Below are positions 3,433 to 60,200 of a DNA stretch of 64,000 nucleotides, one piece after another (position 1 is the first letter of the stretch; each line of letters opens with the position of its first letter). The DNA comes from Phytophthora quininea. Taxonomy: Eukaryota; Oomycota; Peronosporomycetes; Peronosporales; Peronosporaceae. A program made the translations under genes and the position numbers. The notes beneath the pieces were generated by a model. That model was not told where the DNA came from. It worked only from the letters and a program-made list of their open reading frames with translations, and did no database searches. The stretch is taken from the NCBI GenBank assembly GCA_011947345.1, contig JAAVTG010000697.1:186001-250000 (forward strand). Reading direction: 5' to 3'.

Positions 3433-3859
3433 CACCGTATTCACGCTCGGCAGAGGCCAATCGCGCTTCTGTCGACGTGATTGGTCTTGACGGTGGATTG
3501 ATATCCCAATTTTGCATCTATGATTGCCATTTTGTTCTACTACTTTTGTAGTGAAAATGCCAGATAATATGCTATTTCGGATGTTTCAATGGACAATGTA
3601 GTGAAAGTTATGGAGCAAATCATGCAATAGATTATAGTTGTGGTTGGTGACATTATGTGTACAAAAACTGCTAGGAGAAGAATGATGATCTGCGGGCGTA
3701 ATCATATGAACGAAGAAGAAGCAGTTTTGGCAGAATGATGATTCACGGGCGTAATCATAAGAGTTAAGAATAGGAGAAGGGGTCACCAGGCGATAATGTG
3801 CTAGACATTTACAGGTATGTCAGGAGAAGAAGTAGAAGAAGTAGGCGTCGCGAAAGCGC
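3433..3859. other. Intergenic with small imperfect repeats
   Basis: AT-richer spacer with no convincing gene. It holds a 27-bp imperfect direct repeat (3679-3705 and 3732-3758, both ending GGGCGTAATCAT). A 21-bp near-repeat (3811-3831 and 3895-3915, ACAGGTATGTC then GGAGAAGAA) has its second copy inside the start of the PLD-like reading frame. A GAA-rich stretch covers about 3826-3842. Both 21-bp copies contain GTATGT, a possible splice donor, so the true 5' structure of the next gene is uncertain. Confidence 0.4.
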
Positions 3860-4728: not shown

Positions 4729-4940
4729 CCGCATACTTTATCCCAGTCAAATCAGCCCCTTACATTAGTTCATACTTTATCGCGAACCAAGATCAACCCA
4801 CGGAGAACAGAGTCACTTCGCAATTGTAGCGCTGTTGCCATGACGTCCGTGCTATTCTCCGCGCCCGTGGCGGCCATGGACACCTCCGCGCAGCACGCTG
4901 CGCCTTCCGCCACCTCCCTTCCTCCTCGCCTCCTCCTCGC

Positions 4941-9054: not shown

Positions 9055-9082
9055 GTAGGAAAAGACAACAAAAAGAGTACAT

Positions 9083-9217
9083 ATGTGCATGTTGAGTGAG
9101 ATGATGGGAGTGAAATGGTGTGGAAAGAGTGAGCGGGCCAGGCGGGGTGGCTTGGCCCGTGCGAGTGTGCTTGTGGCATGTCTTGTCGGGGTGTGGAGTC
9201 TTCGGGTTTCTTCGGCG
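9083..9217 (+). other. Signal peptide of giant protein
   Basis: Residues 1-45: a basic stretch (KSERARRGGLAR), a hydrophobic core (ASVLVACLVGVWSL) and a small-residue cleavage site RVSSA before PTQ. ATGs at 9083, 9089, 9101 and 9104 are all in frame. The later ones give a more usual signal length of about 38-39 residues. Confidence 0.8.
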
Positions 9218-18200: not shown

Positions 18201-21200
18201 GATCACCGAGCTCCTTAGGTGCAGGCGGTGGTGTGTCCATAGGCAGTGGTTCGTCTGTTCGGGCTCTGGATAATGGAGGGTCAGTGAGCATTGCTACTGG
18301 CTTCGGGGTTGCCAGCGGTAATTTAACTGCAGCCACGGGTGATTCTTCGACAAGTGGGACGGTCACGATTGGGAGTGGAGATGCAACAGTGGGGGATAGT
18401 GGTGCTGTTGTTATCCAGTCTGGCTCGACGTCACAGGGATCATCTGGATCTGTCAGTGTTTCATCGGGGAAAAGCGACTTGTTGCGCGGTGGCGACGTTA
18501 CCCTAACTGCTGGGGAAGGAGCTAACGACGGTGGAAATATTGTAATTGCGAGTGGAATCGCGTCTGCACCTAATGGAGTTGGAGGAAATTTAACGCTAAC
18601 ATCTGGTGGAGGCGACGTGACAGTATCAGGGCCAAGTGCGACGGCTTCTCATATGCATGTGTCTGGAGATGGCTCGGTGAGATTGAAGGCTGGTAGTACT
18701 TCGTCGATGGAGATTCGAGGTGGTAACCACCTCAATACTAGCCTTGAGAGTGGAGAATTAACAGTGTCGCACACACAAGCTGTCGTTCCCGGGCAAGTTA
18801 TCTGGCGCCTCCAGTCAAACAAATCGATTACCCATGTTCCAGCTCAGTTTACTGAGATCACCTACGCGTCTGATCGGCGCATCAAGACAGAAATCGAAGA
18901 TATCGACGAGGATGACATTCTTCAACGCCTTCAAACCCTTGAAGTGAAAAGATACCGCTATTCTCAGCTATGGCGAGACATACGTGGAATTCCAGACGTA
19001 GCAGTTCGGGGTGTTATTGCTCAGCAAGTGGCGGAAACATTTCCGGAGTACGTTACTGTGTCAAAGTTTGAGCTCCCAGAAAAAAACTTCAGCTTTGAAC
19101 ACTTTCATGAAGTGAATAAGCAGCAAATGACGATGGATCTTATTGCTGCGATGCATGCGCAGCACAAACGTTTCAGAATTGGCCCTAACAGCGAACTGAA
19201 GAGTGGACGAATCAATATCGCGACAGCAGACAGCGGCTCCTATGTCGATGCCTCGCCTAGCAGCAGCAGCGGGGATATTGCTATTGAAACGGGATCCTCT
19301 AGTTTTAGCAAGAGTGGTGATGTTTCGATTGCTAGCGGCGGTGCGCAAACTAGCGCTGGGTCGATTACTGCTCGAGCGGGGGACAGCTTCGTTGGCGATG
19401 GTGGGTCTTTACTATTTGGTGCCGGGTCTTCTCAAGGAAGTAACTCGACCGCAGGTAGCGTTATCATTGCTAGTGGGGAGTCGAGTGGTAAACCGGGGAA
19501 CGTAAGTATACAAACACCAGACTCTCGCGGGGGAAAAACAGCGGGGGTATATTTGTGACCACAGGTTGGTCTCCGCTCGGAGATAGCGGTTCTGTCGTTA
19601 TTACCACCGGTGATACGTTAGCTGGGACCCAGGGTCATGTAGAGCTCGAGTCGTCATCCACGTACATTTCTGGCGAGCTGTTGGTGAATGTTGGCGCGCC
19701 CCAATCGTTTCAAACCGCAGGTGATGTTCAGCTGCAAAGTGCCAGCGCTGAATCGCGTTCAGGAGACGTGAAACTGTCAACTGCGTCATTGGTGGGTGTT
19801 CGTGAAACTGGATCGATTGAACTCGAGACTGGTGTCGGAAATCTAAGAAGTGGAGACATTATCTTGCGGTCAGGGAAAAGTCAGATGCAGATAGCATTTC
19901 CTTTTTGCCTTCTGGTGAAGCTGGGAATGTGGTCATTCAAGGAGGTGACTCTGCAGACAAAGGAGGCAATGTCACGATTTCTTCAGGTCGTGGTCGTTTA
20001 AAACCTGGAAGTATCTCGATTTCGATGCCAAGCTCCACGGAGTCGGATGGAGGTGCTATTACAGTCAGCACAGAATCATCCCATACCAGTGCAACAGGGA
20101 GTATCATGTTGATTACCGGAGAGGCGGGTTCAAAGAATTCGGGGTCCGTTACAATTCAATCCGGATCTACAGCTTCTTCGTCCAGTGGAATAGTTAATTT
20201 TCAAGCCGGAGGGTCCTCCTCGGGGCTGGCGGGCTCTATCATGGCCAGCGCCGGATCATCATCGTCAACTGGACAAGGCGGCTCTGTCAGTGTGTCCGGC
20301 GGGTCGTCGACGGACGGCTCTGGAGGTGACGTGACAATCGCCAGTGGTGCTTCCGGAAGTGGTGTTGCCGGGAGCAGTGTGGCCGTCCGTAGCGGCTCCG
20401 GCGGTGGCCTGCGCATCATCCAAGGCGACAGCGTCGCGGCTGGCAGCGATGTGGAGCTGCGCGGCGGCGCCGTGAGGAGCTCGTCTCCTGCACAGAAAGT
20501 GAAGATCGCGGGGTCTCCGAACGCGCTAGGCGACGGAGGCGATGTGTCGGTTGAGGCCGGGTCGTCTGATGCGAGTGCCGGCGGGTCTGTGTCTGTGACC
20601 AGCGGCGCCGGCGCCACGACTAGTGGCAACGTGATCGTGTCGACCGGCGTGGTGTCGGGTGGATCGAGTGGCGATGTCGCTGTGAGCACGAGTGCTAGTA
20701 GTGTCTCGAGTGGGTCTGTCGGAATCGCGAGCGGGTCCGGCGAGACTCGTGCTGGGTCCATCGACGTGTCCGGGGTTCGTCTGGAAGCGGAGAAGGCTCT
20801 GGCATTTCTGTGGTTGGCGGCGCGTCCAACGCGTCGACCGGTGGCAATGTGACGATCGTCAGCGGCGAGGGCGTATCGACCGAGAGCGGCACGGTGGTGG
20901 TGCGTTCTCACGCCGGCACAGGCAGCGCCGTCAGTGGGTCCGTGTCGCTGTCGAGCGGTCCGACGGATGACGGTTCGTCTGGCTTGGTCTCGATCACGTC
21001 TGGCTCATCGATGAGAGGACCCAGTGGGCCGTTGCGCGTCGGCGGTGGCGACGCTGGCGACTCTGGCGGGTCTGTGAGCGTGTCTGGAGGCAGCAGCTCC
21101 GGCGCGTCTGGGTCCGGCGGTGCGATCGATCTGAGTGGTGGTGCCGGTGCAACGGGCGGTACCGTGACGGTGGCTGCTGGTTTGAGCTCGGCTGGCAACG

Positions 21201-24200
21201 GGGCCTCGCTGTCTCTGACGAGTGGAGAAGGGTCCGCTGGCAGTGGCGTGGTGCGGCTGTCGAGTGCGGCTGGAGTGGCGTCGGGCAATGTGTCGATTTC
21301 GTCTGGCTCGTCGTCCGGTAGCAGTGCTTCGGCAGGAAACATCGATCTGACCGTGGGTGTGTCCCAGGCTGGAGGCGGCCTCGTTGACATACGTGCTGGG
21401 TCTAGTGTTCAGTCCGCCGCGGGCGACGTGAAGGTGACGGGTGGTTCGTCTCTGGTGTCGACCTCTTCGGTGGACCCGGTAGCAGGTGCCGTTCGAGTGG
21501 AGGGCGGCGCTTCTGGTGGCCCGAACGCGGGTGGCGTGGTGTCTGTCCTTGGTGGCGCTGGCGTCTCGCGGGGCGGCTCGGTGTCCGTGTTGAGTGGCAG
21601 CGGCAGTGACACGGCTGCGATCAGTGGCGACGTGACGGTGGGTTCGTTTGCCGCGGACGCGAGTGGGTCCGTCGCAGTAGTCAGTGGTGCGTCGGTCAAC
21701 GGCGCGTCTGGCAGTGTGACGGTGGGAAGCGGTGGCTCTGCAAGCAGCACGTCTGGGTCCGTGGCTGTGGTCGGCGGCTCCAGCGCTGCAGACAGCGGCG
21801 GCTCTGTGTCGGTGCACGGTGGCCACAGTGGCGGTGGTTCTGTGGGCGGCTCTGTGACGTTACAGAGTGGGTCGAGTGCCGCGGACGCTGCCAGCGGTCT
21901 CGTCGATATTGGGAGCGGGGCTGCGGCGGGGTCGGGCGCTAGTGGCAACATCAGTGTTCGCACGGGCAGTGCGGTGTCCGGCGCGTCAGGGACGCTGTCG
22001 GTGGTGTCTGGTGACAGCTCCAGCGCTTCAAGCGGCGACGTAATCGTGGCGAGTGGCCTTTCGACGTCGTCGGATGCTGGTAATGTGGGCATCCACGGCG
22101 GCTCGACCGGCAGCGCGACTGCACGCGGAGGCTCCGTGTCTGTGTCATCCGGCCGGATGGCGTGGTGAGCCTAGTGAGTGGTGTTCGTCGCAGTGCTGGC
22201 GGCGGGGTAGTGGACATAGCTGCCGGTGACAGCACTAGTGACAGTGTGGGTGGTGGCAGCGTGAACGTGCGCGGCGGGTCTTTGAGTGGATCATCGGGCG
22301 TCGCTGGCGGCGTCTCTGTCTGGCGGCGTGGGTTCGTCTGGCACGACCATCGGGGAGGTGTTTCTCTCGACGGCGGCATGAGTGGCGCTGGTGTGGGCGG
22401 CCGTGTGGCTATCTCTTCTGGCGCCGGTTTGCTCGGAAGTGGTTCCGTGCGTGTTGCAACCGGCGTGAGTTTGACGGGGATGGCCCGAGCGGCTCCGTGT
22501 CGGTCAGCAGCGGCGGGTCCGCGGACGCGGCTTCGGGCGACGTGAGTGTGTCGTCGGGACCTTCTTCGTCGAGCTTCAGTGGTAATGTGTCCGTGGCGTC
22601 TGGCTCTGCGGGCGGAACGGCCGGCAACGTGTCGGTGTCGGGAGGCTCTAGCAGCTCGTCGACGGGAGGTGTCGTGTCCGTGGTGAGCGGCGGCGGCGGC
22701 GTCTCGAGCGGCGCTGTGTCTGTTGGTAGCGCTGCGTCGAGTGGTGCGTCGGTTTCTGGCGCGGTGTCGTTGGTGTCTGGGGAAGCCGTGGCTGGCGCGT
22801 CCGGCGCTGTGAGTGTGGCGAGCGGGTCTAGCGCCAGCTCGAATGGCGGCGCGCTGAATGTGGTCGGCGGGTCTAGTGGTGGTGCTGGGGATGGAGGCAC
22901 CATCACAGTGGCCGGTGGCAACACGTTGACGGGGGATGCTGGCTCCGTTAAGGTGAGCGGCGGCTTGTCTTCGTCAAGCGGCTTGGGAGGCTCTGTCAGT
23001 GTGTCCGGCGGGTCGTCGACGGACGGCTCTGGAGGTGACGTGACAATCGCCAGTGGTGCTTCCGGAAGTGGTGTTGCCGGGAGCAGTGTGGCCGTCCGTA
23101 GCGGCTCCGGCGGTGGCCTGCGCATCATCCAAGGCGACAGCGTCGCGGCTGGCAGCGATGTGGAGCTGCGCGGCGGCGCCGTGAGGAGCTCGTCTCCTGC
23201 ACAGAAAGTGAAGATCGCGGGGTCTCCGAACGCGCTAGGCGACGGAGGCGATGTGTCGGTTGAGGCCGGGTCGTCTGATGCGAGTGCCGGCGGGTCTGTG
23301 TCTGTGACCAGCGGCGCCGGCGCCACGACTAGTGGCAACGTGATCGTGTCGACCGGCGTGGTGTCGGGTGGATCGAGTGGCGATGTCGCTGTGAGCACGA
23401 GTGCTAGTAGTGTCTCGAGTGGGTCTGTCGGAATCGCGAGCGGGTCCGGCGAGACTCGTGCTGGGTCCATCGACGTGTCCGGGGTTCGTCTGGAAGCGGA
23501 GAAGGCTCTGGCATTTCTGTGGTTGGCGGCGCGTCCAACGCGTCGACCGGTGGCAATGTGACGATCGTCAGCGGCGAGGGCGTATCGACCGAGAGCGGCA
23601 CGGTGGTGGTGCGTTCTCACGCCGGCACAGGCAGCGCCGTCAGTGGGTCCGTGTCGCTGTCGAGCGGTCCGACGGATGACGGTTCGTCTGGCTTGGTCTC
23701 GATCACGTCTGGCTCATCGATGAGAGGACCCAGTGGGCCGTTGCGCGTCGGCGGTGGCGACGCTGGCGACTCTGGCGGGTCTGTGAGCGTGTCTGGAGGC
23801 AGCAGCTCCGGCGCGTCTGGGTCCGGCGGTGCGATCGATCTGAGTGGTGGTGCCGGTGCAACGGGCGGTACCGTGACGGTGGCCGCTGGTTTGAGCTCGG
23901 CTGGCAACGGGGCCTCGCTGTCTCTGACGAGTGGAGAAGGGTCCGCTGGCAGTGGCGTGGTGCGGCTGTCGAGTGCGGCTGGAGTGGCGTCGGGCAATGT
24001 GTCGATTTCGTCTGGCTCGTCGTCCGGTAGCAGTGCTTCGGCAGGAAACATCGATCTGACCGTGGGTGTGTCCCAGGCTGGAGGCGGCCTCGTTGACATA
24101 CGTGCTGGGTCTAGTGTTCAGTCCGCCGCGGGCGACGTGAAGGTGACGGGTGGTTCGTCTCTGGTGTCGACCTCTTCGGTGGACCCGGTAGCAGGTGCCG

Positions 24201-27200
24201 TTCGAGTGGAGGGCGGCGCTTCTGGTGGCCCGAACGCGGGTGGCGTGGTGTCTGTCCTTGGTGGCGCTGGCGTCTCGCGGGGCGGCTCGGTGTCCGTGTT
24301 GAGTGGCAGCGGCAGTGACACGGCTGCGATCAGTGGCGACGTGACGGTGGGTTCGTTTGCCGCGGACGCGAGTGGGTCCGTCGCAGTAGTCAGTGGTGCG
24401 TCGGTCAACGGCGCGTCTGGCAGTGTGACGGTGGGAAGCGGTGGCTCTGCAAGCAGCACGTCTGGGTCCGTGGCTGTGGTCGGCGGCTCCAGCGCTGCAG
24501 ACAGCGGCGGCTCTGTGTCGGTGCACGGTGGCCACAGTGGCGGTGGTTCCGTGGGCGGCTCTGTGACGTTACAGAGTGGCTCGAGTGCCGCGGACGCTGC
24601 CAGCGGTCTCGTCGATATTGGGAGCGGGGCTGCGGCGGGGTCGGGCGCTAGTGGCAACATCAGTGTTCGCACGGGCAGTGCGGTGTCCGGCGCGTCAGGG
24701 ACGCTGTCGGTGGTGTCTGGTGACAGCTCCAGCGCTTCAAGCGGCGACGTAATCGTGGCGAGTGGCCTTTCGACGTCGTCGGATGCTGGTAATGTGGGCA
24801 TCCACGGCGGCTCGACCGGCAGCGCGACTGCACGCGGAGGCTCCGTGTCTGTGTCATCCGGCCCGGATGGCGTGGTGAGCCTAGTGAGTGGTGTTCGTCG
24901 CAGTGCTGGCGGCGGGGTAGTGGACATAGCTGCCGGTGACAGCACTAGTGACAGTGTGGGTGGTGGCAGCGTGAACGTGCGCGGCGGGTCTTTGAGTGGA
25001 TCATCGGGCGTCGCTGGCGGCGTCTCTCTGTCTGGCGGCGTGGGTTCGTCTGGCACGACCATCGGGGAGGTGTTTCTCTCGACGGCGGCATGAGTGGCGC
25101 TGGTGTGGGCGGCCGTGTGGCTATCTCTTCTGGCGCCGGTTTGCTCGGAAGTGGTTCCGTGCGTGTTGCAACCGGCGTGAGTTTGACGGGGATGGCCCGA
25201 GCGGCTCCGTGTCGGTCAGCAGCGGCGGGTCCGCGGACGCGGCTTCGGGCGACGTGAGTGTGTCGTCGGGACCTTCTTCGTCGAGCTTCAGTGGTAATGT
25301 GTCCGTGGCGTCTGGCTCTGCGGGCGGAACGGCCGGCAACGTGTCGGTGTCGGGAGGCTCTAGCAGCTCGTCGACGGGAGGTGTCGTGTCCGTGGTGAGC
25401 GGCGGCGGCGGCGTCTCGAGCGGCGCTGTGTCTGTTGGTAGCGCTGCGTCGAGTGGTGCGTCGGTTTCTGGCGCGGTGTCGTTGGTGTCTGGGGAAGCCG
25501 TGGCTGGCGCGTCCGGCGCTGTGAGTGTGGCGAGCGGGTCTAGCGCCAGCTCGAATGGCGGCGCGCTGAATGTGGTCGGCGGGTCTAGTGGTGGTGCTGG
25601 GGATGGAGGCACCATCACAGTGGCCGGTGGCAACACGTTGACGGGGGATGCTGGCTCCGTTAAGGTGAGCGGCGGCTTGTCTTCGTCAAGCGGCTTGGGA
25701 GGCTCTGTCAGTGTGTCCGGCGGGTCGTCGACGGACGGCTCTGGAGGTGACGTGACAATCGCCAGTGGTGCTTCCGGAAGTGGTGTGGCCGGGAGCAGTG
25801 TGGCCGTCCGTAGCGGCTCCGGCGGTGGCCTGCGCATCATCCAAGGCGACAGCGTCGCGGCTGGCAGCGATGTGGAGCTGCGCGGCGGCGCCGTGAGGAG
25901 CTCGTCTCCTGCACAGAAAGTGAAGATCGCGGGGTCTCCGAACGCGCTAGGCGACGGAGGCGATGTGTCGGTTGAGGCCGGGTCGTCTGATGCGAGTGCC
26001 GGCGGGTCTGTGTCTGTGACCAGCGGCGCCGGCGCCACGACTAGTGGCAACGTGATCGTGTCGACCGGCGTGGTGTCGGGTGGATCGAGTGGCGATGTCG
26101 CTGTGAGCACGAGTGCTAGTAGTGTCTCGAGTGGGTCTGTCGGAATCGCGAGCGGGTCCGGCGAGACTCGTGCTGGGTCCATCGACGTGTCCGGGGTTCG
26201 TCTGGAAGCGGAGAAGGCTCTGGCATTTCTGTGGTTGGCGGCGCGTCCAACGCGTCGACCGGTGGCAATGTGACGATCGTCAGCGGCGAGGGCGTATCGA
26301 CCGAGAGCGGCACGGTGGTGGTGCGTTCTCACGCCGGCACAGGCAGCGCCGTCAGTGGGTCCGTGTCGCTGTCGAGCGGTCCGACGGATGACGGTTCGTC
26401 TGGCTTGGTCTCGATCACGTCTGGCTCATCGATGAGAGGACCCAGTGGGCCGTTGCGCGTCGGCGGTGGCGACGCTGGCGAAGCTGGCGGGTCTGTGAGC
26501 GTGTCTGGAGGCAGCAGCTCCGGCGCGTCTGGGTCCGGCGGTGCGATCGATCTGAGTGGTGGTGCCGGTGCAACGGGCGGTACCGTGACGATGGCTGCTG
26601 GTTTGAGCTCGGCTGGCAACGGGGCCTCGCTGTCTCTGACGAGTGGAGAAGGGTCCGCTGGCAGTGGCGTGGTGCGGCTGTCGAGTGCGGCTGGAGTGGC
26701 GTCGGGCAATGTGTCGATTTCGTCCGGCTCGTCGTCCGGTAGCAGTGCTTCGGCAGGAAACATCGATCTGACCGTGGGTGTGTCCCAGGCTGGAGGCGGC
26801 CTCGTTGACATACGTGCTGGGTCTAGTGTTCAGTCCGCCGCGGGCGACGTGAAGGTGACGGGTGGTTCGTCTCTGGTGTCGACCTCTTCGGTGGACCCGG
26901 TAGCAGGTGCCGTTCGAGTGGAGGGCGGCGCTTCTGGTGGCCCGAACGCGGGTGGCGTGGTGTCTGTCCTTGGTGGCGCTGGCGTCTCGCGGGGCGGCTC
27001 GGTGTCCGTGTTGAGTGGCAGCGGCAGTGACACGGCTGCGATCAGTGGCGACGTGACGGTGGGTTCGTTTGCCGCGGACGCGAGTGGGTCCGTCGCAGTA
27101 GTCAGTGGTGCGTCGGTCAACGGCGCGTCTGGCAGTGTGACGGTGGGAAGCGGTGGCTCTGCAAGCAGCACGTCTGGGTCCGTGGCTGTGGTCGGCGGCT

Positions 27201-30200
27201 CCAGCGCTGCAGACAGCGGCGGCTCTGTGTCGGTGCACGGTGGCCACAGTGGCGGTGGTTCCGTGGGCGGCTCTGTGACGTTACAGAGTGGCTCGAGTGC
27301 CGCGGACGCTGCCAGCGGTCTCGTCGATATTGGGAGCGGGCTGCGGCGGGGTCGGGCGCTAGTGGCAACATCAGTGTTCGCACGGGCAGTGCGGTGTCCG
27401 GCGCGTCAGGGACGCTGTCGGTGGTGTCTGGTGACAGCTCCAGCGCTTCAAGCGGCGACGTAATCGTGGCGAGTGGCCTTTCGACGTCGTCGGATGCTGG
27501 TAATGTGGGCATCCACGGCGGCTCGACCGGCAGCGCGACTGCACGCGGAGGCTCCGTGTCTGTGTCATCCGGCCCGGATGGCGTGGTGAGCCTAGTGAGT
27601 GGTGTTCGTCGCAGTGCTGGCGGCGGGGTAGTGGACATAGCTGCCGGTGACAGCACTAGTGACAGTGTGGGTGGTGGCAGCGTGAACGTGCGCGGCGGGT
27701 CTTTGAGTGGATCATCGGGCGTCGCTGGCGGCGTCTCTCTGTCTGGCGGCGTGGGTTCGTCTGGCACGACCATCGGGGAGGTGTTTCTCTCGACGGCGGC
27801 ATGAGTGGCGCTGGTGTGGGCGGCCGTGTGGCTATCTCTTCTGGCGCCGGTTTGCTCGGAAGTGGTTCCGTGCGTGTTGCAACCGGCGTGAGTTTGACGG
27901 GGATGGCCCGAGCGGCTCCGTGTCGGTCAGCAGCGGCGGGTCCGCGGACGCGGCTTCGGGCGACGTGAGTGTGTCGTCGGGACCTTCTTCGTCGAGCTTC
28001 AGTGGTAATGTGTCCGTGGCGTCTGGCTCTGCGGGCGGAACGGCCGGCAACGTGTCGGTGTCGGGAGGCTCTAGCAGCTCGTCGACGGGAGGTGTCGTGT
28101 CCGTGGTGAGCGGCGGCGGCAGCGTCTCGAGCGGCGCTGTGTCTGTTGGTAGCGCTGCGTCGAGTGGTGCGTCGGTTTCTGGCGCGGTGTCGTTGGTGTC
28201 TGGGGAAGCCGTGGCTGGCGCGTCCGGCGCTGTGAGTGTGGCGAGCGGGTCTAGCGCCAGCTCGAATGGCGGCGCGCTGAATGTGGTCGGCGGGTCTAGT
28301 GGTGGTGCTGGGGATGGAGGCACCATCACAGTGGCCGGTGGCAACACGTTGACGGGGGATGCTGGCTCCGTTAAGGTGAGCGGCGGCTTGTCTTCGTCAA
28401 GCGGCTTGGGAGGCTCTGTCAGTGTGTCCGGCGGGTCGTCGACGGACGGCTCTGGAGGTGACGTGACAATCGCCAGTGGTGCTTCCGGAAGTGGTGTTGC
28501 CGGGAGCAGTGTGGCCGTCCGTAGCGGCTCCGGCGGTGGCCTGCGCATCATCCAAGGCGACAGCGTCGCGGCTGGCAGCGATGTGGAGCTGCGCGGCGGC
28601 GCCGTGAGGAGCTCGTCTCCTGCACAGAAAGTGAAGATCGCGGGTCTCCGAACGCGCTAGGCGACGGAGGCGATGTGTCGGTTGAGGCCGGGTCGTCTGA
28701 TGCGAGTGCCGGCGGGTCTGTGTCTGTGACCAGCGGCGCCGGCGCCACGACTAGTGGCAACGTGATCGTGTCGACCGGCGTGGTGTCGGGTGGATCGAGT
28801 GGCGATGTCGCTGTGAGCACGAGTGCTAGTAGTGTCTCGAGTGGGTCTGTCGGAATCGCGAGCGGGTCCGGCGAGACTCGTGCTGGGTCCATCGACGTGT
28901 CCGGGGTTCGTCTGGAAGCGGAGAAGGCTCTGGCATTTCTGTGGTTGGCGGCGCGTCCAACGCGTCGACCGGTGGCAATGTGACGATCGTCAGCGGCGAG
29001 GGCGTATCGACCGAGAGCGGCACGGTGGTGGTGCGTTCTCACGCCGGCACAGGCAGCGCCGTCAGTGGGTCCGTGTCGCTGTCGAGCGGTCCGACGGATG
29101 ACGGTTCGTCTGGCTTGGTCTCGATCACGTCTGGCTCATCGATGAGAGGACCCAGTGGGCCGTTGCGCGTCGGCGGTGGCGACGCTGGCGACTCTGGCGG
29201 GTCTGTGAGCGTGTCTGGAGGCAGCAGCTCCGGCGCGTCTGGGTCCGGCGGTGCGATCGATCTGAGTGGTGGTGCCGGTGCAACGGGCGGTACCGTGACG
29301 GTGGCTGCTGGTTTGAGCTCGGCTGGCAACGGGGCCTCGCTGTCTCTGACGAGTGGAGAAGGGTCCGCTGGCAGTGGCGTGGTGCGGCTGTCGAGTGCGG
29401 CTGGAGTGGCGTCGGGCAATGTGTCGATTTCGTCTGGCTCGTCGTCCGGTAGCAGTGCTTCGGCAGGAAACATCGATCTGACCGTGGGTGTGTCCCAGGC
29501 TGGAGGCGGCCTCGTTGACATACGTGCTGGGTCTAGTGTTCAGTCCGCCGCGGGCGACGTGAAGGTGACGGGTGGTTCGTCTCTGGTGTCGACCTCTTCG
29601 GTGGACCCGGTAGCAGGTGCCGTTCGAGTGGAGGGCGGCGCTTCTGGTGGCCCGAACGCGGGTGGCGTGGTGTCTGTCCTTGGTGGCGCTGGCGTCTCGC
29701 GGGGCGGCTCGGTGTCCGTGTTGAGTGGCAGCGGCAGTGACACGGCTGCGATCAGTGGCGACGTGACGGTGGGTTCGTTTGCCGCGGACGCGAGTGGGTC
29801 CGTCGCAGTAGTCAGTGGTGCGTCGGTCAACGGCGCGTCTGGCAGTGTGACGGTGGGAAGCGGTGGCTCTGCAAGCAGCACGTCTGGGTCCGTGGCTGTG
29901 GTCGGCGGCTCCAGCGCTGCAGACAGCGGCGGCTCTGTGTCGGTGCACGGTGGCCACAGTGGCGGTGGTTCCGTGGGCGGCTCTGTGACGTTACAGAGTG
30001 GCTCGAGTGCCGCGGACGCTGCCAGCGGTCTCGTCGATATTGGGAGCGGGGCTGCGGCGGGGTCGGGCGCTAGTGGCAACATCAGTGTTCGCACGGGCAG
30101 TGCGGTGTCCGGCGCGTCAGGACGCTGTCGGTGGTGTCTGGTGACAGCTCCAGCGCTTCAAGCGGCGACGTAATCGTGGCGAGTGGCCTTTCGACGTCGT

Positions 30201-48200: not shown

Positions 48201-51200
48201 GGCGGCGCGCTGAATGTGGTCGGCGGGTCTAGTGGTGGTGCTGGGGATGGAGGCACCATCACAGTGGCCGGTGGCAACACGTTGACGGGGATGCTGGCTC
48301 CGTTAAGGTGAGCGGCGGCTTGTCTTCGTCAAGCGGCTTGGGAGGCTCTGTCAGTGTGTCCGGCGGGTCGTCGACGGACGGCTCTGGAGGTGACGTGACA
48401 ATCGCCAGTGGTGCTTCCGGAAGTGGTGTGGCCGGGAGCAGTGTGGCCGTCCGTAGCGGCTCCGGCGGTGGCCTGCGCATCATCCAAGGCGACAGCGTCG
48501 CGGCTGGCAGCGATGTGGAGCTGCGCGGCGGCGCCGTGAGGAGCTCGTCTCCTGCACAGAAAGTGAAGATCGCGGGGTCTCCGAACGCGCTAGGCGACGG
48601 AGGCGATGTGTCGGTTGAGGCCGGGTCGTCTGATGCGAGTGCCGGCGGGTCTGTGTCTGTGACCAGCGGCGCCGGCGCCACGACTAGTGGCAACGTGATC
48701 GTGTCGACCGGCGTGGTGTCGGGTGGATCGAGTGGCGATGTCGCTGTGAGCACGAGTGCTAGTAGTGTCTCGAGTGGGTCTGTCGGAATCGCGAGCGGGT
48801 CCGGCGAGACTCGTGCTGGGTCCATCGACGTGTCCGGGGTTCGTCTGGAAGCGGAGAAGGCTCTGGCATTTCTGTGGTTGGCGGCGCGTCCAACGCGTCG
48901 ACCGGTGGCAATGTGACGATCGTCAGCGGCGAGGGCGTATCGACCGAGAGCGGCACGGTGGTGGTGCGTTCTCACGCCGGCACAGGCAGCGCCGTCAGTG
49001 GGTCCGTGTCGCTGTCGAGCGGTCCGACGGATGACGGTTCGTCTGGCTTGGTCTCGATCACGTCTGGCTCATCGATGAGAGGACCCAGTGGGCCGTTGCG
49101 CGTCGGCGGTGGCGACGCTGGCGAAGCTGGCGGGTCTGTGAGCGTGTCTGGAGGCAGCAGCTCCGGCGCGTCTGGGTCCGGCGGTGCGATCGATCTGAGT
49201 GGTGGTGCCGGTGCAACGGGCGGTACCGTGACGATGGCTGCTGGTTTGAGCTCGGCTGGCAACGGGGCCTCGCTGTCTCTGACGAGTGGAGAAGGGTCCG
49301 CTGGCAGTGGCGTGGTGCGGCTGTCGAGTGCGGCTGGAGTGGCGTCGGGCAATGTGTCGATTTCGTCCGGCTCGTCGTCCGGTAGCAGTGCTTCGGCAGG
49401 AAACATCGATCTGACCGTGGGTGTGTCCCAGGCTGGAGGCGGCCTCGTTGACATACGTGCTGGGTCTAGTGTTCAGTCCGCCGCGGGCGACGTGAAGGTG
49501 ACGGGTGGTTCGTCTCTGGTGTCGACCTCTTCGGTGGACCCGGTAGCAGGTGCCGTTCGAGTGGAGGGCGGCGCTTCTGGTGGCCCGAACGCGGGTGGCG
49601 TGGTGTCTGTCCTTGGTGGCGCTGGCGTCTCGCGGGGCGGCTCGGTGTCCGTGTTGAGTGGCAGCGGCAGTGACACGGCTGCGATCAGTGGCGACGTGAC
49701 GGTGGGTTCGTTTGCCGCGGACGCGAGTGGGTCCGTCGCAGTAGTCAGTGGTGCGTCGGTCAACGGCGCGTCTGGCAGTGTGACGGTGGGAAGCGGTGGC
49801 TCTGCAAGCAGCACGTCTGGGTCCGTGGCTGTGGTCGGCGGCTCCAGCGCTGCAGACAGCGGCGGCTCTGTGTCGGTGCACGGTGGCCACAGTGGCGGTG
49901 GTTCTGTGGGCGGCTCTGTGACGTTACAGAGTGGGTCGAGTGCCGCGGACGCTGCCAGCGGTCTCGTCGATATTGGGAGCGGGGCTGCGGCGGGGTCGGG
50001 CGCTAGTGGCAACATCAGTGTTCGCACGGGCAGTGCGGTGTCCGGCGCGTCAGGGACGCTGTCGGTGGTGTCTGGTGACAGCTCCAGCGCTTCAAGCGGC
50101 GACGTAATCGTGGCGAGTGGCCTTTCGACGTCGTCGGATGCTGGTAATGTGGGCATCCACGGCGGCTCGACCGGCAGCGCGACTGCACGCGGAGGCTCCG
50201 TGTCTGTGTCATCCGGGCCGGATGGCGTGGTGAGCCTAGTGAGTGGTGTTCGTCGCAGTGCTGGCGGCGGGGTAGTGGACATAGCTGCCGGTGACAGCAC
50301 TAGTGACGGTGTGGGTGGTGGCAGCGTGAACGTGCGCGGCGGGTCTTTGAGTGGATCATCGGGCGTCGCTGGCGGCGTCTCTCTGTCTGGCGGCGTGGGT
50401 TCGTCTGGCACGACCATCGGGGAGGTGTTTCTCTCGACGGCGGCATGAGTGGCGCTGGTGTGGGCGGCCGTGTGGCTATCTCTTCTGGCGCCGGTTTGCT
50501 CGGAAGTGGTTCCGTGCGTGTTGCAACCGGCGTGAGTTTGACGGGGATGGCCCGAGCGGCTCCGTGTCGGTCAGCAGCGGCGGGTCCGCGGACGCGGCTT
50601 CGGGCGACGTGAGTGTGTCGTCTGGACCTTCTTCGTCGAGCTTCAGTGGTAATGTGTCCGTGGCGTCTGGCTCTGCGGGCGGAACGGCCGGCAACGTGTC
50701 GGTGTCGGGAGGCTCTAGCAGCTCGTCGACGGGAGGTGTCGTGTCCGTGGTGAGCGGCGGCGGCGGCGTCTCGAGCGGCGCTGTGTCTGTTGGTAGCGCT
50801 GCGTCGAGTGGTGCGTCGGTTTCTGGCGCGGTGTCGTTGGTGTCTGGGGAAGCCGTGGCTGGCGCGTCCGGCGCTGTGAGTGTGGCGAGCGGGTCTAGCG
50901 CCAGCTCGAATGGCGGCGCGCTGAATGTGGTCGGCGGGTCTAGTGGTGGTGCTGGGGATGGAGGCACCATCACAGTGGCCGGTGGCAACACGTTGACGGG
51001 GGATGCTGGCTCCGTTAAGGTGAGCGGCGGCTTGTCTTCGTCAAGCGGCTTGGGAGGCTCTGTCAGTGTGTCCGGCGGGTCGTCGACGGACGGCTCTGGA
51101 GGTGACGTGACAATCGCCAGTGGTGCTTCCGGAAGTGGTGTGGCCGGGAGCAGTGTGGCCGTCCGTAGCGGCTCCGGCGGTGGCCTGCGCATCATCCAAG

Positions 51201-54200
51201 GCGACAGCGTCGCGGCTGGCAGCGATGTGGAGCTGCGCGGCGGCGCCGTGAGGAGCTCGTCTCCTGCACAGAAAGTGAAGATCGCGGGGTCTCCGAACGC
51301 GCTAGGCGACGGAGGCGATGTGTCGGTTGAGGCCGGGTCGTCTGATGCGAGTGCCGGCGGGTCTGTGTCTGTGACCAGCGGCGCCGGCGCCACGACTAGT
51401 GGCAACGTGATCGTGTCGACCGGCGTGGTGTCGGGTGGATCGAGTGGCGATGTCGCTGTGAGCACGAGTGCTAGTAGTGTCTCGAGTGGGTCTGTCGGAA
51501 TCGCGAGCGGGTCCGGCGAGACTCGTGCTGGGTCCATCGACGTGTCCGGGGTTCGTCTGGAAGCGGAGAAGGCTCTGGCATTTCTGTGGTTGGCGGCGCG
51601 TCCAACGCGTCGACCGGTGGCAATGTGACGATCGTCAGCGGCGAGGGCGTATCGACCGAGAGCGGCACGGTGGTGGTGCGTTCTCACGCCGGCACAGGCA
51701 GCGCCGTCAGTGGGTCCGTGTCGCTGTCGAGCGGTCCGACGGATGACGGTTCGTCTGGCTTGGTCTCGATCACGTCTGGCTCATCGATGAGAGGACCCAG
51801 TGGGCCGTTGCGCGTCGGCGGTGGCGACGCTGGCGACGCTGGCGGGTCTGTGAGCGTGTCTGGAGGCAGCAGCTCCGGCGCGTCTGGGTCCGGCGGTGCG
51901 ATCGATCTGAGTGGTGGTGCCGGTGCAACGGGCGGTACCGTGACGATGGCTGCTGGTTTGAGCTCGGCTGGCAACGGGGCCTCGCTGTCTCTGACGAGTG
52001 GAGAAGGGTCCGCTGGCAGTGGCGTGGTGCGGCTGTCGAGTGCGGCTGGAGTGGCGTCGGGCAATGTGTCGATTTCGTCTGGCTCGTCGTCCGGTAGCAG
52101 TGCTTCGGCAGGAAACATCGATCTGACCGTGGGTGTGTCCCAGGCTGGAGGCGGCCTCGTTGACATACGTGCTGGGTCTAGTGTTCAGTCCGCCGCGGGC
52201 GACGTGAAGGTGACGGGTGGTTCGTCTCTGGTGTCGACCTCTTCGGTGGACCCGGTAGCAGGTGCCGTTCGAGTGGAGGGCGGCGCTTCTGGTGGCCCGA
52301 ACGCGGGTGGCGTGGTGTCTGTCCTTGGTGGCGCTGGCGTCTCGCGGGGCGGCTCGGTGTCCGTGTTGAGTGGCAGCGGCAGTGACACGGCTGCGATCAG
52401 TGGCGACGTGACGGTGGGTTCGTTTGCCGCGGACGCGAGTGGGTCCGTCGCAGTAGTCAGTGGTGCGTCGGTCAACGGCGCGTCTGGCAGTGTGACGGTG
52501 GGAAGCGGTGGCTCTGCAAGCAGCACGTCTGGGTCCGTGGCTGTGGTCGGCGGCTCCAGCGCTGCAGACAGCGGCGGCTCTGTGTCGGTGCACGGTGGCC
52601 ACAGTGGCGGTGGTTCTGTGGGCGGCTCTGTGACGTTACAGAGTGGGTCGAGTGCCGCGGACGCTGCCAGCGGTCTCGTCGATATTGGGAGCGGGGCTGC
52701 GGCGGGGTCGGGCGCTAGTGGCAACATCAGTGTTCGCACGGGCAGTGCGGTGTCCGGCGCGTCAGGGACGCTGTCGGTGGTGTCTGGTGACAGCTCCAGC
52801 GCTTCAAGCGGCGACGTAATCGTGGCGAGTGGCCTTTCGACGTCGTCGGATGCTGGTAATGTGGGCATCCACGGCGGCTCGACCGGCAGCGCGACTGCAC
52901 GCGGAGGCTCCGTGTCTGTGTCATCCGGGCCGGATGGCGTGGTGAGCCTAGTGAGTGGTGTTCGTCGCAGTGCTGGCGGCGGGGTAGTGGACATAGCTGC
53001 CGGTGACAGCACTAGTGACAGTGTGGGTGGTGGCAGCGTGAACGTGCGCGGCGGGTCTTTGAGTGGATCATCGGGCGTCGCTGGCGGCGTCTCTCTGTCT
53101 GGCGGCGTGGGTTCGTCTGGCACGACCATCGGGGAGGTGTTTCTCTCGACGGCGGCATGAGTGGCGCTGGTGTGGGCGGCCGTGTGGCTATCTCTTCTGG
53201 CGCCGGTTTGCTCGGAAGTGGTTCCGTGCGTGTTGCAACCGGCGTGAGTTTGACGGGGATGGCCCGAGCGGCTCCGTGTCGGTCAGCAGCGGCGGGTCCG
53301 CGGACGCGGCTTCGGGCGACGTGAGTGTGTCGTCGGGACCTTCTTCGTCGAGCTTCAGTGGTAATGTGTCCGTGGCGTCTGGCTCTGCGGGCGGAACGGC
53401 CGGCAACGTGTCGGTGTCGGGAGGCTCTAGCAGCTCGTCGACGGGAGGTGTCGTGTCCGTGGTGAGCGGCGGCGGCGGCGTCTCGAGCGGCGCTGTGTCT
53501 GTTGGTAGCGCTGCGTCGAGTGGTGCGTCGGTTTCTGGCGCGGTGTCGTTGGTGTCTGGGGAAGCCGTGGCTGGCGCGTCCGGCGCTGTGAGTGTGGCGA
53601 GCGGGTCTAGCGCCAGCTCGAATGGCGGCGCGCTGAATGTGGTCGGCGGGTCTAGTGGTGGTGCTGGGGATGGAGGCACCATCACAGTGGCCGGTGGCAA
53701 CACGTTGACGGGGATGCTGGCTCCGTTAAGGTGAGCGGCGGCTTGTCTTCGTCAAGCGGCTTGGGAGGCTCTGTCAGTGTGTCCGGCGGGTCGTCGACGG
53801 ACGGCTCTGGAGGTGACGTGACAATCGCCAGTGGTGCTTCCGGAAGTGGTGTTGCCGGGAGCAGTGTGGCCGTCCGTAGCGGCTCCGGCGGTGGCCTGCG
53901 CATCATCCAAGGCGACAGCGTCGCGGCTGGCAGCGATGTGGAGCTGCGCGGCGGCGCCGTGAGGAGCTCGTCTCCTGCACAGAAAGTGAAGATCGCGGGG
54001 TCTCCGAACGCGCTAGGCGACGGAGGCGATGTGTCGGTTGAGGCCGGGTCGTCTGATGCGAGTGCCGGCGGGTCTGTGTCTGTGACCAGCGGCGCCGGCG
54101 CCACGACTAGTGGCAACGTGATCGTGTCGACCGGCGTGGTGTCGGGTGGATCGAGTGGCGATGTCGCTGTGAGCACGAGTGCTAGTAGTGTCTCGAGTGG

Positions 54201-57200
54201 GTCTGTCGGAATCGCGAGCGGGTCCGGCGAGACTCGTGCTGGGTCCATCGACGTGTCCGGGGTTCGTCTGGAAGCGGAGAAGGCTCTGGCATTTCTGTGG
54301 TTGGCGGCGCGTCCAACGCGTCGACCGGTGGCAATGTGACGATCGTCAGCGGCGAGGGCGTATCGACCGAGAGCGGCACGGTGGTGGTGCGTTCTCACGC
54401 CGGCACAGGCAGCGCCGTCAGTGGGTCCGTGTCGCTGTCGAGCGGTCCGACGGATGACGGTTCGTCTGGCTTGGTCTCGATCACGTCTGGCTCATCGATG
54501 AGAGGACCCAGTGGACCGTTGCGCGTCGGCGGTGGCGACGCTGGCGACGCTGGCTGGCGGGTCTGTGAGCGTGTCTGGAGGCAGCAGCTCCGGCGCGTCT
54601 GGGTCCGGCGGTGCGATCGATCTGAGTGGTGGTGCCGGTGCAACGGGCGGTACCGTGACGGTGGCTGCTGGTTTGAGCTCGGCTGGCAACGGGGCCTCGC
54701 TGTCTCTGACGAGTGGAGAAGGGTCCGCTGGCAGTGGCGTGGTGCGGCTGTCGAGTGCGGCTGGAGTGGCGTCGGGCAATGTGTCGATTTCGTCTGGCTC
54801 GTCGTCCGGTAGCAGTGCTTCGGCAGGAAACATCGATCTGACCGTGGGTGTGTCCCAGGCTGGAGGCGGCCTCGTTGACATACGTGCTGGGTCTAGTGTT
54901 CAGTCCGCCGCGGGCGACGTGAAGGTGACGGGTGGTTCGTCTCTGGTGTCGACCTCTTCGGTGGACCCGGTAGCAGGTGCCGTTCGAGTGGAGGGCGGCG
55001 CTTCTGGTGGCCCGAACGCGGGTGGCGTGGTGTCTGTCCTTGGTGGCGCTGGCGTCTCGCGGGGCGGCTCGGTGTCCGTGTTGAGTGGCAGCGGCAGTGA
55101 CACGGCTGCGATCAGTGGCGACGTGACGGTGGGTTCGTTTGCCGCGGACGCGAGTGGGTCCGTCGCAGTAGTCAGTGGTGCGTCGGTCAACGGCGCGTCT
55201 GGCAGTGTGACGGTGGGAAGCGGTGGCTCTGCAAGCAGCACGTCTGGGTCCGTGGCTGTGGTCGGCGGCTCCAGCGCTGCAGACAGCGGCGGCTCTGTGT
55301 CGGTGCACGGTGGCCACAGTGGCGGTGGTTCCGTGGGCGGCTCTGTGACGTTACAGAGTGGCTCGAGTGCCGCGGACGCTGCCAGCGGTCTCGTCGATAT
55401 TGGGAGCGGGGCTGCGGCGGGGTCGGGCGCTAGTGGCAACATCAGTGTTCGCACGGGCAGTGCGGTGTCCGGCGCGTCAGGGACGCTGTCGGTGGTGTCT
55501 GGTGACAGCTCCAGCGCTTCAAGCGGCGACGTAATCGTGGCGAGTGGCCTTTCGACGTCGTCGGATGCTGGTAATGTGGGCATCCACGGCGGCTCGACCG
55601 GCAGCGCGACTGCACGCGGAGGCTCCGTGTCTGTGTCATCCGGCCCGGATGGCGTGGTGAGCCTAGTGAGTGGTGTTCGTCGCAGTGCTGGCGGCGGGGT
55701 AGTGGACATAGCTGCCGGTGACAGCACTAGTGACAGTGTGGGTGGTGGCAGCGTGAACGTGCGCGGCGGGTCTTTGAGTGGATCATCGGGCGTCGCTGGC
55801 GGCGTCTCTCTGTCTGGCGGCGTGGGTTCGTCTGGCACGACCATCGGGGAGGTGTTTCTCTCGACGGCGGCATGAGTGGCGCTGGTGTGGGCGGCCGTGT
55901 GGCTATCTCTTCTGGCGCCGGTTTGCTCGGAAGTGGTTCCGTGCGTGTTGCAACCGGCGTGAGTTTGACGGGGATGGCCCGAGCGGCTCCGTGTCGGTCA
56001 GCAGCGGCGGGTCCGCGGACGCGGCTTCGGGCGACGTGAGTGTGTCGTCGGGACCTTCTTCGTCGAGCTTCAGTGGTAATGTGTCCGTGGCGTCTGGCTC
56101 TGCGGGCGGAACGGCCGGCAACGTGTCGGTGTCGGGAGGCTCTAGCAGCTCGTCGACGGGAGGTGTCGTGTCCGTGGTGAGCGGCGGCGGCAGCGTCTCG
56201 AGCGGCGCTGTGTCTGTTGGTAGCGCTGCGTCGAGTGGTGCGTCGGTTTCTGGCGCGGTGTCGTTGGTGTCTGGGGAAGCCGTGGCTGGCGCGTCCGGCG
56301 CTGTGAGTGTGGCGAGCGGGTCTAGCGCCAGCTCGAATGGCGGCGCGCTGAATGTGGTCGGCGGGTCTAGTGGTGGTGCTGGGGATGGAGGCACCATCAC
56401 AGTGGCCGGTGGCAACACGTTGACGGGGGATGCTGGCTCCGTTAAGGTGAGCGGCGGCTTGTCTTCGTCAAGCGGCTTGGGAGGCTCTGTCAGTGTGTCC
56501 GGCGGGTCGTCGACGGACGGCTCTGGAGGTGACGTGACAATCGCCAGTGGTGCTTCAGGGACTGATACTTCTGGAGAAGTCGAGATTAAAACCGAGCCGA
56601 GCTTGGATGGATCACATAGCGGTGGAATTAAACTCACTTCAGGAAGTGGTTCTAATGCCGGGTCGGTGTCTCTTGTTTCAGGAGATCATGAAGCAGCCAT
56701 AGGTGTTGGAAATGGGGGTGTCGTGATATCGAGTGCTGATGGAAATGTCTCTATTAGCGGGGCTTTTACGAAGCAAACATCTACAGATGAAGCAATTTTG
56801 AGAATGCAAACTCGGTCACTGCAGATGGGATCATCTTTAGAGTCCGTAATGATATGGTTGTTGGTACCGTCCCAGCGCAGTTTCCACAAGTGATTTCACC
56901 TTCTGACCGGCGGATTAAGACCGATATTGAGGATATTGACGAGGATGATATTCTTCAACGTTTGCAAACACTTGAAATCAAGCAGTATCGGTACACCGAT
57001 GAGTGGAGACGGATTCGAGGGATTGAAGACTCAGTAGTGCGAGGAATTATTGCGCAACAAGCCCACGAAACGTTTCCGGAGTACGTTAGTGTGAAAGATT
57101 TCTATCTCAACGAGAGCGACTTCGGTTTGATGAATTTTCATCAAATAGACAAGCAAAAGGTCATTTTAGACCTTGTCGCGGCGATTCACGCGCAACATCG

Positions 57201-60200
57201 ACGGTTCCGCGTATCTGGGAATACGCCAGACAAAAGCGGGAACGTGATTGTGTCTAGTGCAGACTCGGGGGTATGCTACAAGCACAGCTACATCTGGAAC
57301 CGGATCAGTCTCAATAGAATCAGGAGTTTCACGAGCAAGTTCTAGTGGAAACGTTCAGGTGGTGACTGGTGATGCATTAAACGGCCAAGCCGGTAGCATT
57401 ATGATCGGAGTGGGTGACAGCAGTGACCATGGTGGAAGCATTTCGCTGGAAGGTGGAACTGCAACCGGATCATCAAGCGTCGGTGGCTCTGTTGCTGTAG
57501 CTTCCGGCGGTAGTGACGCTGGAAACACTGGAAGCGTCACTATCGGAACTACTAATGCAGGAATTACCGGTAACTCTGGTGATATACTCGTCGGATCCGG
57601 CAACACTAATTTCGGGGAAACAGGTTGGGTAGAACTTCAGTCAGGCGACTCTATTAGTGGGACTAGCGGCAACGTTGTGATTGGTGCTGGATCCAGCCTC
57701 TCAGGCAATGGCGGGTCAGTGGCGCTCTCGGCGGGGTCATCCGGGTCTAATACCGCGGGCGGCTCCGTGGGCGTCGTGTCGGGCACCTCCACTACTGGTG
57801 CATCCGGCGGCATTTCGATTGCGTCCGCGTCAAGTTCTGGCCCCAAGTCTCGCGGAAGTGGGAACGTAAGCGTGGCTACTGGTGACTCGGACGCAACTGT
57901 GGGCGTAGCTTTCATCGCTGGAGGACAATCGTCGGCTAACAACGGCGGCAGCGTGGTCGTCAGTGGCGGCGATACTGTCAAAGGGATTGGCGGCATCGTG
58001 GATATTTCGTCGGGGACGTCCGCGATGGCCGACTCTGGCAAGGTTGGATTGCGCTCTGCTGGCGTGGCGTCGGCTTCGAACAGCGGACCGGTCCAGATTG
58101 AATCGGGCAGTTCCTCAAGCGGCACGTCGGGCGACGTGATCGTCAGCAGTGGATCTTCGCCGACATCCACAACAGTGGGCACCGTGCGTTTGGCAGGAGG
58201 TACTTCGGGTTCCGCCGGTGGTGTCGGCGGCGCCATCTCTGTCGCCGGCGGAGGTTCCAGCACAGGAGGTTCTATCACCGTGGGTGGTGGTAGCGGCTTG
58301 TCGAAGGGAGGATCTGTCGAGGTAGTGGCCGGCGCGACAGGGTCTGCTGGCACCGGCGGCGCCGTGACGGTGTCCTCTAGTGTGTCTGATACCATGCGCA
58401 GCGCTGGGCCGGTGAGTATTGCATCCGGGCGAGGATCACTAGGCACAGTTGACATTTCGTCGGGCGTCTCTTCTGGAGGCGTCAGCGACGTATCTGCCTC
58501 GGTTTCTCTCCGAACCGCCCCAACTAGTAATGGCGCGAGTGGGTCCATCACTGTCGGAACGGGCTCGTCGGCTTCGTCTCTCTGGAGGCGTGAACATGGC
58601 TTCTGGAGACAGCAGCGTCTCGGTCGGCTCTCTTCGACTAACTGCTGGCTCGGGCATTGGCGTGGCAGGCGGGTCTGTCCAGGTTGTCTCCGGGAACAGC
58701 AGCTCGAATATGGGCGGAAAGATCGACGTCGTCTCAGGAGGAGGAGGTTCGACTTCAGGCGCGATATTGATTACTTCTCGAAACTCGAGCTCAGGGGGTT
58801 CAGTGGACGGCTCGATATCTCTTCTGGAGGCGGTCAAGGGTCGAGCGGCATGGTCTCGATTTCGTCGGGTGCTGCGCGTGACGTAGTCGGCGACATCCTG
58901 CTTTCTGGTGGTCGATCGAGCATTGGCCGTGGAGGTGCGGTGTCTGTCCAGTCCGGGGCGAGCGACGCACTTGCCAGCGGGATTGTCGGCATATCGTCCG
59001 GCGCTGGAGTCGGCGGCGTGTCTTCTGGACGAGTGACTCTTTCGTCGGGGATCGCGCTGCCGGCGCCTCGGGTAGTGTGGTGGTGGCAACGGGGACTCTG
59101 GTGCTGTTGCTGGCAATGTGAGCATTCTATCTGGTCGAGGAGTTGGTCCGGTGACAAGCGGTCTCGTCGAGTTACGTTCCGGCGACTCTATTAGTGGGAC
59201 TAGCGGCAACGTCGTGATTGGTGCTGGATCCAGCCTCTCAGGCAATGGCGGGTCAGTGGCGCTCTCGGCGGGGTCATCCGGGTCTAATACCGCGGGCGGC
59301 TCCGTGGGCGTCGTGTCGGGCACCTCCACTACTGGTGCATCCGGCGGCATTTCGATTGCGTCCGCGTCAAGTTCTGGCCCCAAGTCTCGCGGAAGTGGGA
59401 ACGTAAGCGTGGCTACTGGTGACTCGGACGCAACTGTGGGCGTAGCTTTCATCGCTGGAGGACAATCGTCGGCTAACAACGGCGGCAGCGTGGTCGTCAG
59501 TGGCGGCGATACTGTCAAAGGGATTGGCGGCATCGTGGATATTTCGTCGGGGACGTCCGCGATGGCCGACTCTGGCAAGGTTGGATTGCGCTCTGCTGGC
59601 GTGGCGTCGGCTTCGAACAGCGGACCGGTCCAGATTGAATCGGGCAGTTCCTCAAGCGGCACGTCGGGCGACGTGATCGTCAGCAGTGGATCTTCGCCGA
59701 CATCCACAACAGTGGGCACCGTGCGTTTGGCAGGAGGTACTTCGGGTTCCGCCGGTGGTGTCGGCGGCGCCATCTCTGTCGCCGGCGGAGGTTCCAGCAC
59801 AGGAGGTTCTATCACCGTGGGTGGTGGTAGCGGCTTGTCGAAGGGAGGATCTGTCGAGGTAGTGGCCGGCGCGACAGGGTCTGCTGGCACCGGCGGCGCC
59901 GTGACGGTGTCCTCTAGTGTGTCTGATACCATGCGCAGCGCTGGGTCGGTGAGTATTGCATCCGGGCGAGGATCACTAGGCACAGTTGACATTTCGTCGG
60001 GCGTCTCTTCTGGAGGCGTCAGCGACGTATCTGCCTCGGTTTCTCTCCGAACCGCCCCAACTAGTAATGGCGCGAGTGGGTCCATCACTGTCGGAACGGG
60101 CTCGTCGGCTTCGTCTCTCTCTGGAGGCGTGAACATGGCTTCTGGAGACAGCAGCGTCTCGGTCGGCTCTCTTCGACTAACTGCTGGCTCGGGCATCGTG

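What the first reader, a model, noticed from the sequence alone, without database searches (positions are those of the whole stretch)
18869..57215. Internal, repeated S74 self-cleaving chaperone domains suggest a self-processing fibre polyprotein
Both S74 domains keep the S-D-R-R-I-K Ser/Lys dyad, five residues apart as in phage endosialidases and MYRF, and the GxIAQQ..ETFPEYV core. S74 domains usually end a protein. Here long repeats follow each one, directly in frame for the first. Autocleavage would divide the chain into about 3.2k, 12.7k and at least 2.4k residue products, each helped to trimerise by the S74 domain downstream of it. A trimerising domain embedded in a chain continuing on both sides is unusual and implies an ordered assembly-then-cut process.
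Basis: partly seen in the sequence, partly recalled or inferred. Interest (0 to 1): 0.9.

Follow-up and report, generated by a model that had tools for sequence, protein, structure and literature searches.

The report
Giant oomycete fibre with internal self-cutters
A water-mould gene seems to encode an extremely long repeat protein with two built-in domains of a kind that, in viruses and animals, makes a protein assemble in threes and then cut itself, so the chain may process itself into three fibre pieces.

Summary
Window 18869 and 56902 start two real Peptidase_S74 (ICA) domains (43.0 and 51.8 bits, cut-off 22) with intact Ser/Lys dyad, embedded in Ser/Gly-rich repeats of about 15 residues. 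The gene runs past the window, from 9083 to 84336 in window numbering: 75.3 kb, about 25,000 codons if one chain. Of 311 tiles across it, 305 show the repeat signature; the other 6 are the N-terminus and the two domains. The embedded position is conserved: 17 of 22 relatives with the motif go on past the domain into repeats (one only in part); 5 stop in or at it. One relative has two S74 motifs in one open frame. The nearest solved relative is the MYRF ICA domain, itself internal, so embedding has a precedent; two copies in a giant repeat protein were not found in print (searches listed). Cleavage is inferred; 3 of 22 relatives lack the Ser. Frame breaks in this assembly are probably sequence errors, not proven. 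New variant of a known kind.

The parts
9083..9700 (+). N-terminus: Met, hydrophobic stretch (signal-peptide-like) and Cys-rich region with a weak PSI/plexin match; end approximate
   Evidence: Frame 9059-10093; the most hydrophobic 15-residue windows start at residues 23-29; 18 Cys in the first 170 residues; Pfam PSI 20.5 bits, below its cut-off 23.1. One further copy in the genome, on the allelic contig C88.
9700..18720 (+). Ser/Gly-rich repeat tract 1 (period about 15 residues)
   Evidence: Tiles with the repeat signature; spacing measured on 17201-18866 only. Several frame changes.
18869..19171 (+). S74-1 (ICA) domain, dyad Ser codon 18869, with helical tail (end of tail approximate)
19172..20400 (+). 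Repeats directly after S74-1, first in the same open frame (to 19555)
20447..56400 (+). Tandem array of a unit of about 2.71 kb (about 904 codons); 12 or 13 copies by three of four anchors (the fourth finds 7); one copy with about 960 extra bases. Limits approximate (first anchor 20447)
   Evidence: One copy is open over more than a whole unit (33080-35932, 951 codons).
56902..57204 (+). S74-2 (ICA) domain, dyad Ser codon 56902 (end of tail approximate)
   Evidence: Pfam 51.8 bits over 56902-57087; MYRF ICA 7dc3 E 4.5e-9 by sequence.
57248..64000 (+). Repeat tract 3, with a unit of about 1.54 kb in three copies; goes on past the window (14 anchors of a 1212-base unit) to a stop at window numbering 84336

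Best explanation
It is a giant secreted or surface fibre protein of an oomycete, encoded as one chain of up to about 25,000 residues: a signal-like and Cys-rich N-terminus, then tens of kilobases of 15-residue Ser/Gly beta-type repeats, interrupted by two MYRF-type S74/ICA domains. Most likely each S74 domain brings three chains together and sets the repeats upstream of it in register. In the trimer its Ser, helped by the Lys five residues on, then attacks the bond just before it, so the chain is cut into about 3.3k, 12.7k and 9.1k residue pieces. As in MYRF, the S74 domain would stay at the head of the downstream piece and so could hold that piece together too. Shown: domains, dyads, position, repeat tract, conservation, fold of S74-1. 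Inferred: single chain despite frame breaks, secretion, trimerisation, cleavage and its order.
Against: No single open frame spans the gene here, and by eye most of the breaks in the 5' 10 kb also stand in the allelic contig C88, as a truly broken gene would show. The control of frame integrity in conserved genes was sent six times and never answered. 3 of 22 relatives lack the Ser, so cutting is not essential to the design. S74-1 has Ala at the residue before the Ser. S74-2 was not modelled; the model of S74-1 is one chain, not a trimer. No protein or transcript was seen. Array copy numbers rest on the assembly.
Confidence: 0.6

Rival explanations
1. The S74 domains are internal trimer nodes only: they align three chains and re-set the register along a very long fibre, but the chain is not cut, or is cut and the halves stay joined. 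(Shares the anatomy with the best explanation; the odds given here overlap.)
For: Three relatives that keep the embedded domain have Ala for the Ser, one also Ala for the Lys (P0011, P0017, P0021). S74-1 has Ala, not Pro, before the Ser.
Against: Ser kept in 19 and Lys in 21 of 22 relatives, both kept in both window domains; both residues are needed for cutting in MrfA (PMC3828593, passages).
Confidence: 0.25
2. The locus is a decayed gene: frame breaks are real and no full-length product is made.
For: Many frame changes; by eye most of those in the 5' 10 kb stand in both allelic contigs. Gap columns between the alleles lie near runs of four or more bases in only 4 of 11 cases.
Against: Both dyads and Pfam-matched S74 stretches are open in the window; the 1212-base array is open for 3213 codons; one 2.71-kb copy is open over more than a full unit. 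Among 11 array copies the short length variants in the part of the listing that was shown are mostly private to one copy, and the three shared by several (gapped in 3, 5 and 8 of 11) lie in G runs of 4-5 (its listing was cut in the middle, and a change fixed in all copies would not show this way). C88 has an extra break in the tail of S74-1 where the window is open, and another S74 gene is broken on contig C195 but open on C172: the assembly makes such errors. 10 of 17 placed substitutions between the alleles fall on third codon positions (18 in all, one not placed).
Confidence: 0.1
3. Two or more neighbouring genes, each with its own S74 domain, read as one because starts and stops are hidden by frame errors and tandem arrays.
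For: Predicted relatives are short models, several named partial; array copy number and order depend on assembly.
Against: No gap in the repeat signature between the domains; P0030 has two S74 motifs in one frame, P0027 about 2,000 residues after one; the N-terminal region is found only here and on the allelic contig C88.
Confidence: 0.15
4. A virus-derived fibre gene (polinton-like or giant virus) sitting in the host genome.
For: The same genome carries virus-like elements whose fibre ORFs end in S74; PHROG tail fibre family phrog_1980 matches both domains (56.5 and 70.7 bits).
Against: All 3 viral contigs relatives have S74 at the end and are 26-28% identical. The closest solved domain is MYRF, not phage. 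Of 4 upstream frames scanned, 3 matched Pfam: transposase, PLD-like, kinase.
Confidence: 0.05

Closest known systems
MYRF / MrfA ICA domain (animals, Dictyostelium)
   Different: [quoted passage not shown] here two domains sit in a giant repeat protein with a signal-like start, and no DNA-binding domain was found in the 14 frames scanned.
Phage tailspike/fibre intramolecular chaperone (EndoNF CIMCD; 3gud, 3gw6, T5 4uw8)
   Same: Same domain family, dyad spacing, upstream beta-rich fibre.
   Different: There the domain is C-terminal and released; here about 12,700 and 9,100 codons follow.
Polinton-like virus fibre proteins with S74 (PMC12220804, passages)
   Same: Long modular repeat proteins with S74, in protists; similar elements sit elsewhere in this genome.
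   Different: Single S74, often at the C-terminus, in proteins of up to 3.9k residues by that paper.
Oomycete/stramenopile S74-repeat proteins: P. sojae PHYSODRAFT_500080, P. infestans PITG_01491, Aphanomyces astaci DYB28_000574, Phaeothamnion
   Same: Same family with embedded S74.
   Different: Deposited as short, in part partial, uncharacterised models; the Phaeothamnion one lacks the Ser.

Membership tests
Peptidase_S74 / ICA domain (PF13884) | Profile match above the curated cut-off | tested here: met
   43.0 and 51.8 bits against 22.
Peptidase_S74 / ICA domain (PF13884) | Ser/Lys catalytic dyad five residues apart | tested here: met
   SDRRIK in both domains.
Peptidase_S74 / ICA domain (PF13884) | ICA fold | tested here: met
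   [not shown]
Peptidase_S74 / ICA domain (PF13884) | Trimerisation and self-cleavage before the Ser | not testable with these tools
   Needs protein.
Phage C-terminal intramolecular chaperone | Domain at the C-terminal end of the chain | tested here: not met
   Repeats follow both domains.
MYRF/MrfA family | ICA domain internal, closest by sequence | tested here: met
   Best PDB match 7dc3.
MYRF/MrfA family | Ndt80-like DNA-binding domain upstream | tested here: not met
   No such Pfam family in the 14 frames of this gene that were scanned (10, 4); not every frame was scanned.
MYRF/MrfA family | Transmembrane segment after the ICA domain | not tested
   No membrane predictor used.
Polinton-like virus fibre | Usual layout: single S74 at the C-terminus of the fibre (often, by PMC12220804) | tested here: not met
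   Two embedded domains.
Polinton-like virus fibre | Capsid and packaging genes alongside | not tested
   The flanking contig was only partly read.

The most novel reading that the evidence does not exclude
A single predicted polypeptide of about 25,000 residues (the size class of titin, recalled) is a self-processing polyprotein: two embedded, virus-type chaperone domains assemble three giant chains and cut them into three trimeric fibres, a eukaryotic extracellular use of the phage tailspike trick, conserved across stramenopiles, with some lineages keeping the trimer node but dropping the cut.
Probability: 0.42. Interest if true: 0.82.

Novelty: new variant of a known kind. Interest (0 to 1): 0.64.

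Why it matters
S74/ICA domains are known as disposable ends of phage spikes and as the switch of MYRF. Here the same module recurs inside a giant repeat protein that looks secreted, in a family that takes in oomycetes and at least one alga. If true it would show a way to fold and cut chains too long to trimerise by chance, and members with and without the Ser offer a natural contrast for separating the chaperone role from the protease role.

Tried and rejected
Introns as the cause of the frame changes: by eye, neighbouring frames overlap and the 15-residue pattern runs on across the change, so removing an intron would take out repeat residues; not tested by transcripts.

Literature: 'Peptidase S74' with 'oomycete' found 0 papers, PITG_01491 found 0. 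Searches listed 1 to 16 papers each, and searches listed only 15 of 4,089 and 8 of 385; none of the titles or abstract starts shown described this family. This covers an open library only and is no proof of absence from print. Passages seen by term search: PMC3742443, PMC3828593, PMC12220804, PMC13294678, PMC6601393. All others: search listing only.

Control for frame integrity (HSP70 family in the own genome) was sent six times and never answered.

Full report
What is there. The window is part (186001-250000) of a 690 kb contig of an unnamed 87 Mb genome.

The gene around them. It begins with a Met at 9083, a hydrophobic stretch and a Cys-rich region (18 Cys in 170 residues; PSI match just under its cut-off). 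It ends at a stop at contig 270336, 20 kb past the window: 75,256 bases, about 25,085 codons if taken as one chain. Tiles of 240 bases were scored for the repeat signature in the best of three frames: 305 of 311 inside have two or more on the + strand against 13 of 311 on the - strand, and 2 of 36 upstream; the six failures are two tiles at the N-terminus and two at each S74 domain. So the gene is one repeat tract with exactly those islands. The repeat period is about 15 residues: lag 15 is the strongest in four of the five segments measured and the second strongest, after 29, in the fifth, which has 93 residues. Three tandem arrays lie in it: about 2.71 kb (12, 7, 12 and 13 matches to four anchors), about 1.54 kb (3 matches) and 1212 bases (14 matches).

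Frame breaks. The window has many changes of frame; roughly a dozen between 9 and 20 kb, read by eye. Against decay: the 1212-base array is open for 3213 codons; a 2.71-kb copy is open for 951 codons, more than one unit; among 11 copies the short length variants shown are mostly private to one copy, and the three shared by several lie in G runs of 4-5 (part of its listing was cut, and a change fixed in all copies would not be seen this way). The allelic contig C88 (9997 columns, 99.71% identical, 18 substitutions, 11 gap columns) has an extra break in the tail of S74-1, where the window is open. Another S74 gene is open on C172 but broken on C195. For decay: by eye most breaks in the 5' 10 kb stand in both alleles, and gap columns between the alleles lie near runs of four or more in 4 of 11 cases only, though the background share is 8%. 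I read them mainly as assembly error, unproven. The wanted control on conserved genes did not complete.

Is the embedded position real? Yes. Of 26 profile hits, 22 show the dyad motif; 17 of these go on 38 or more residues past the domain and all 17 have repeat motifs there (P0012 only in its first part), while 5 stop inside or at the domain (P0018, P0019, P0020, P0022, P0023). The 4 hits without the motif are P0016, which begins inside the domain and goes on in repeats, and P0024, P0025 and P0026, which show no S74. A search with the 1212-base array gave 5 longer relatives: P0027 (2635 residues, S74 at 545), P0030 (2412 residues, motifs at 484 and 2398 in one frame, the second at the end of the model) and three without the motif. 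P0007 from P. oleae matches S74-2 and stays open past the point where the window frame breaks. In contrast, the S74 domains elsewhere in this genome (9 of 12 matches, on C172, C195, C34, C469, C737, C738 and C752) lie near the end of their frames, and all 3 viral relatives have 119-133 residues from match start to stop.

How it probably works. In K1F endosialidase the cut lies just N-terminal of the Ser. MrfA needs both Ser and Lys; the peptide seen there began at the Asp after the Ser, and the authors infer a cut before the Ser followed by trimming (PMC3828593, passages). In MYRF the halves are 1-577 and S578-D1111; the N-terminal half is a trimer and the C-terminal half is oligomeric (PMC3742443, passages). 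Carried over, the giant chain would trimerise at each S74 domain and part into about 3,262, 12,678 and 9,145 codons. Unlike a phage domain, S74 would stay at the head of the next piece. This is inference. Points against uniform cutting: Ser is Ala in P0011, P0017 and P0021, the last also lacking Lys, and S74-1 has Ala before the Ser, where 16 of 22 relatives and S74-2 have the Pro that PMC3828593 describes for MRFs; K1F endosialidase has Thr there by the same paper, so Pro is not a must. So the trimer-node role looks more general than the cut.

Verdict. The domain family and its internal use are known; two embedded copies in a giant stramenopile repeat protein were not found in print in the searches, which cover an open-access library only and show a small part of the matches.

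Noticed in passing
G000 contigs C34, C469, C737, C738, C752 (L003-L007, L013, L014): Several virus-like (polinton-type by look) elements whose fibre ORF ends in an S74 domain; some copies nearly identical. Described only.
   Followed up: partly
L001 (C172) and L002 (C195): A different S74 gene with a coiled-coil-like tail after the domain; the copy on C195 is frame-broken where C172 is open.
   Followed up: partly
window 37269-40940: One copy of the 2.71-kb unit carries about 960 extra bases, like a partial duplication.
   Followed up: no
window 2658-3290, 3845-4588, 4830-6290: DDE_1 transposase piece, PLD-like domain ORF and a protein kinase ORF (open, 487 codons) upstream of the giant gene.
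   Followed up: partly
P0011, P0017, P0021: Relatives that keep the embedded S74 domain but have Ala in place of the catalytic Ser; P0021 also lacks the Lys.
   Followed up: yes
P0028, P0029, P0031: Giant (2.6-4.0k residues) relatives of the repeats without a recognisable S74 motif; P0029 and P0031 share a similar C-terminal end.
   Followed up: no
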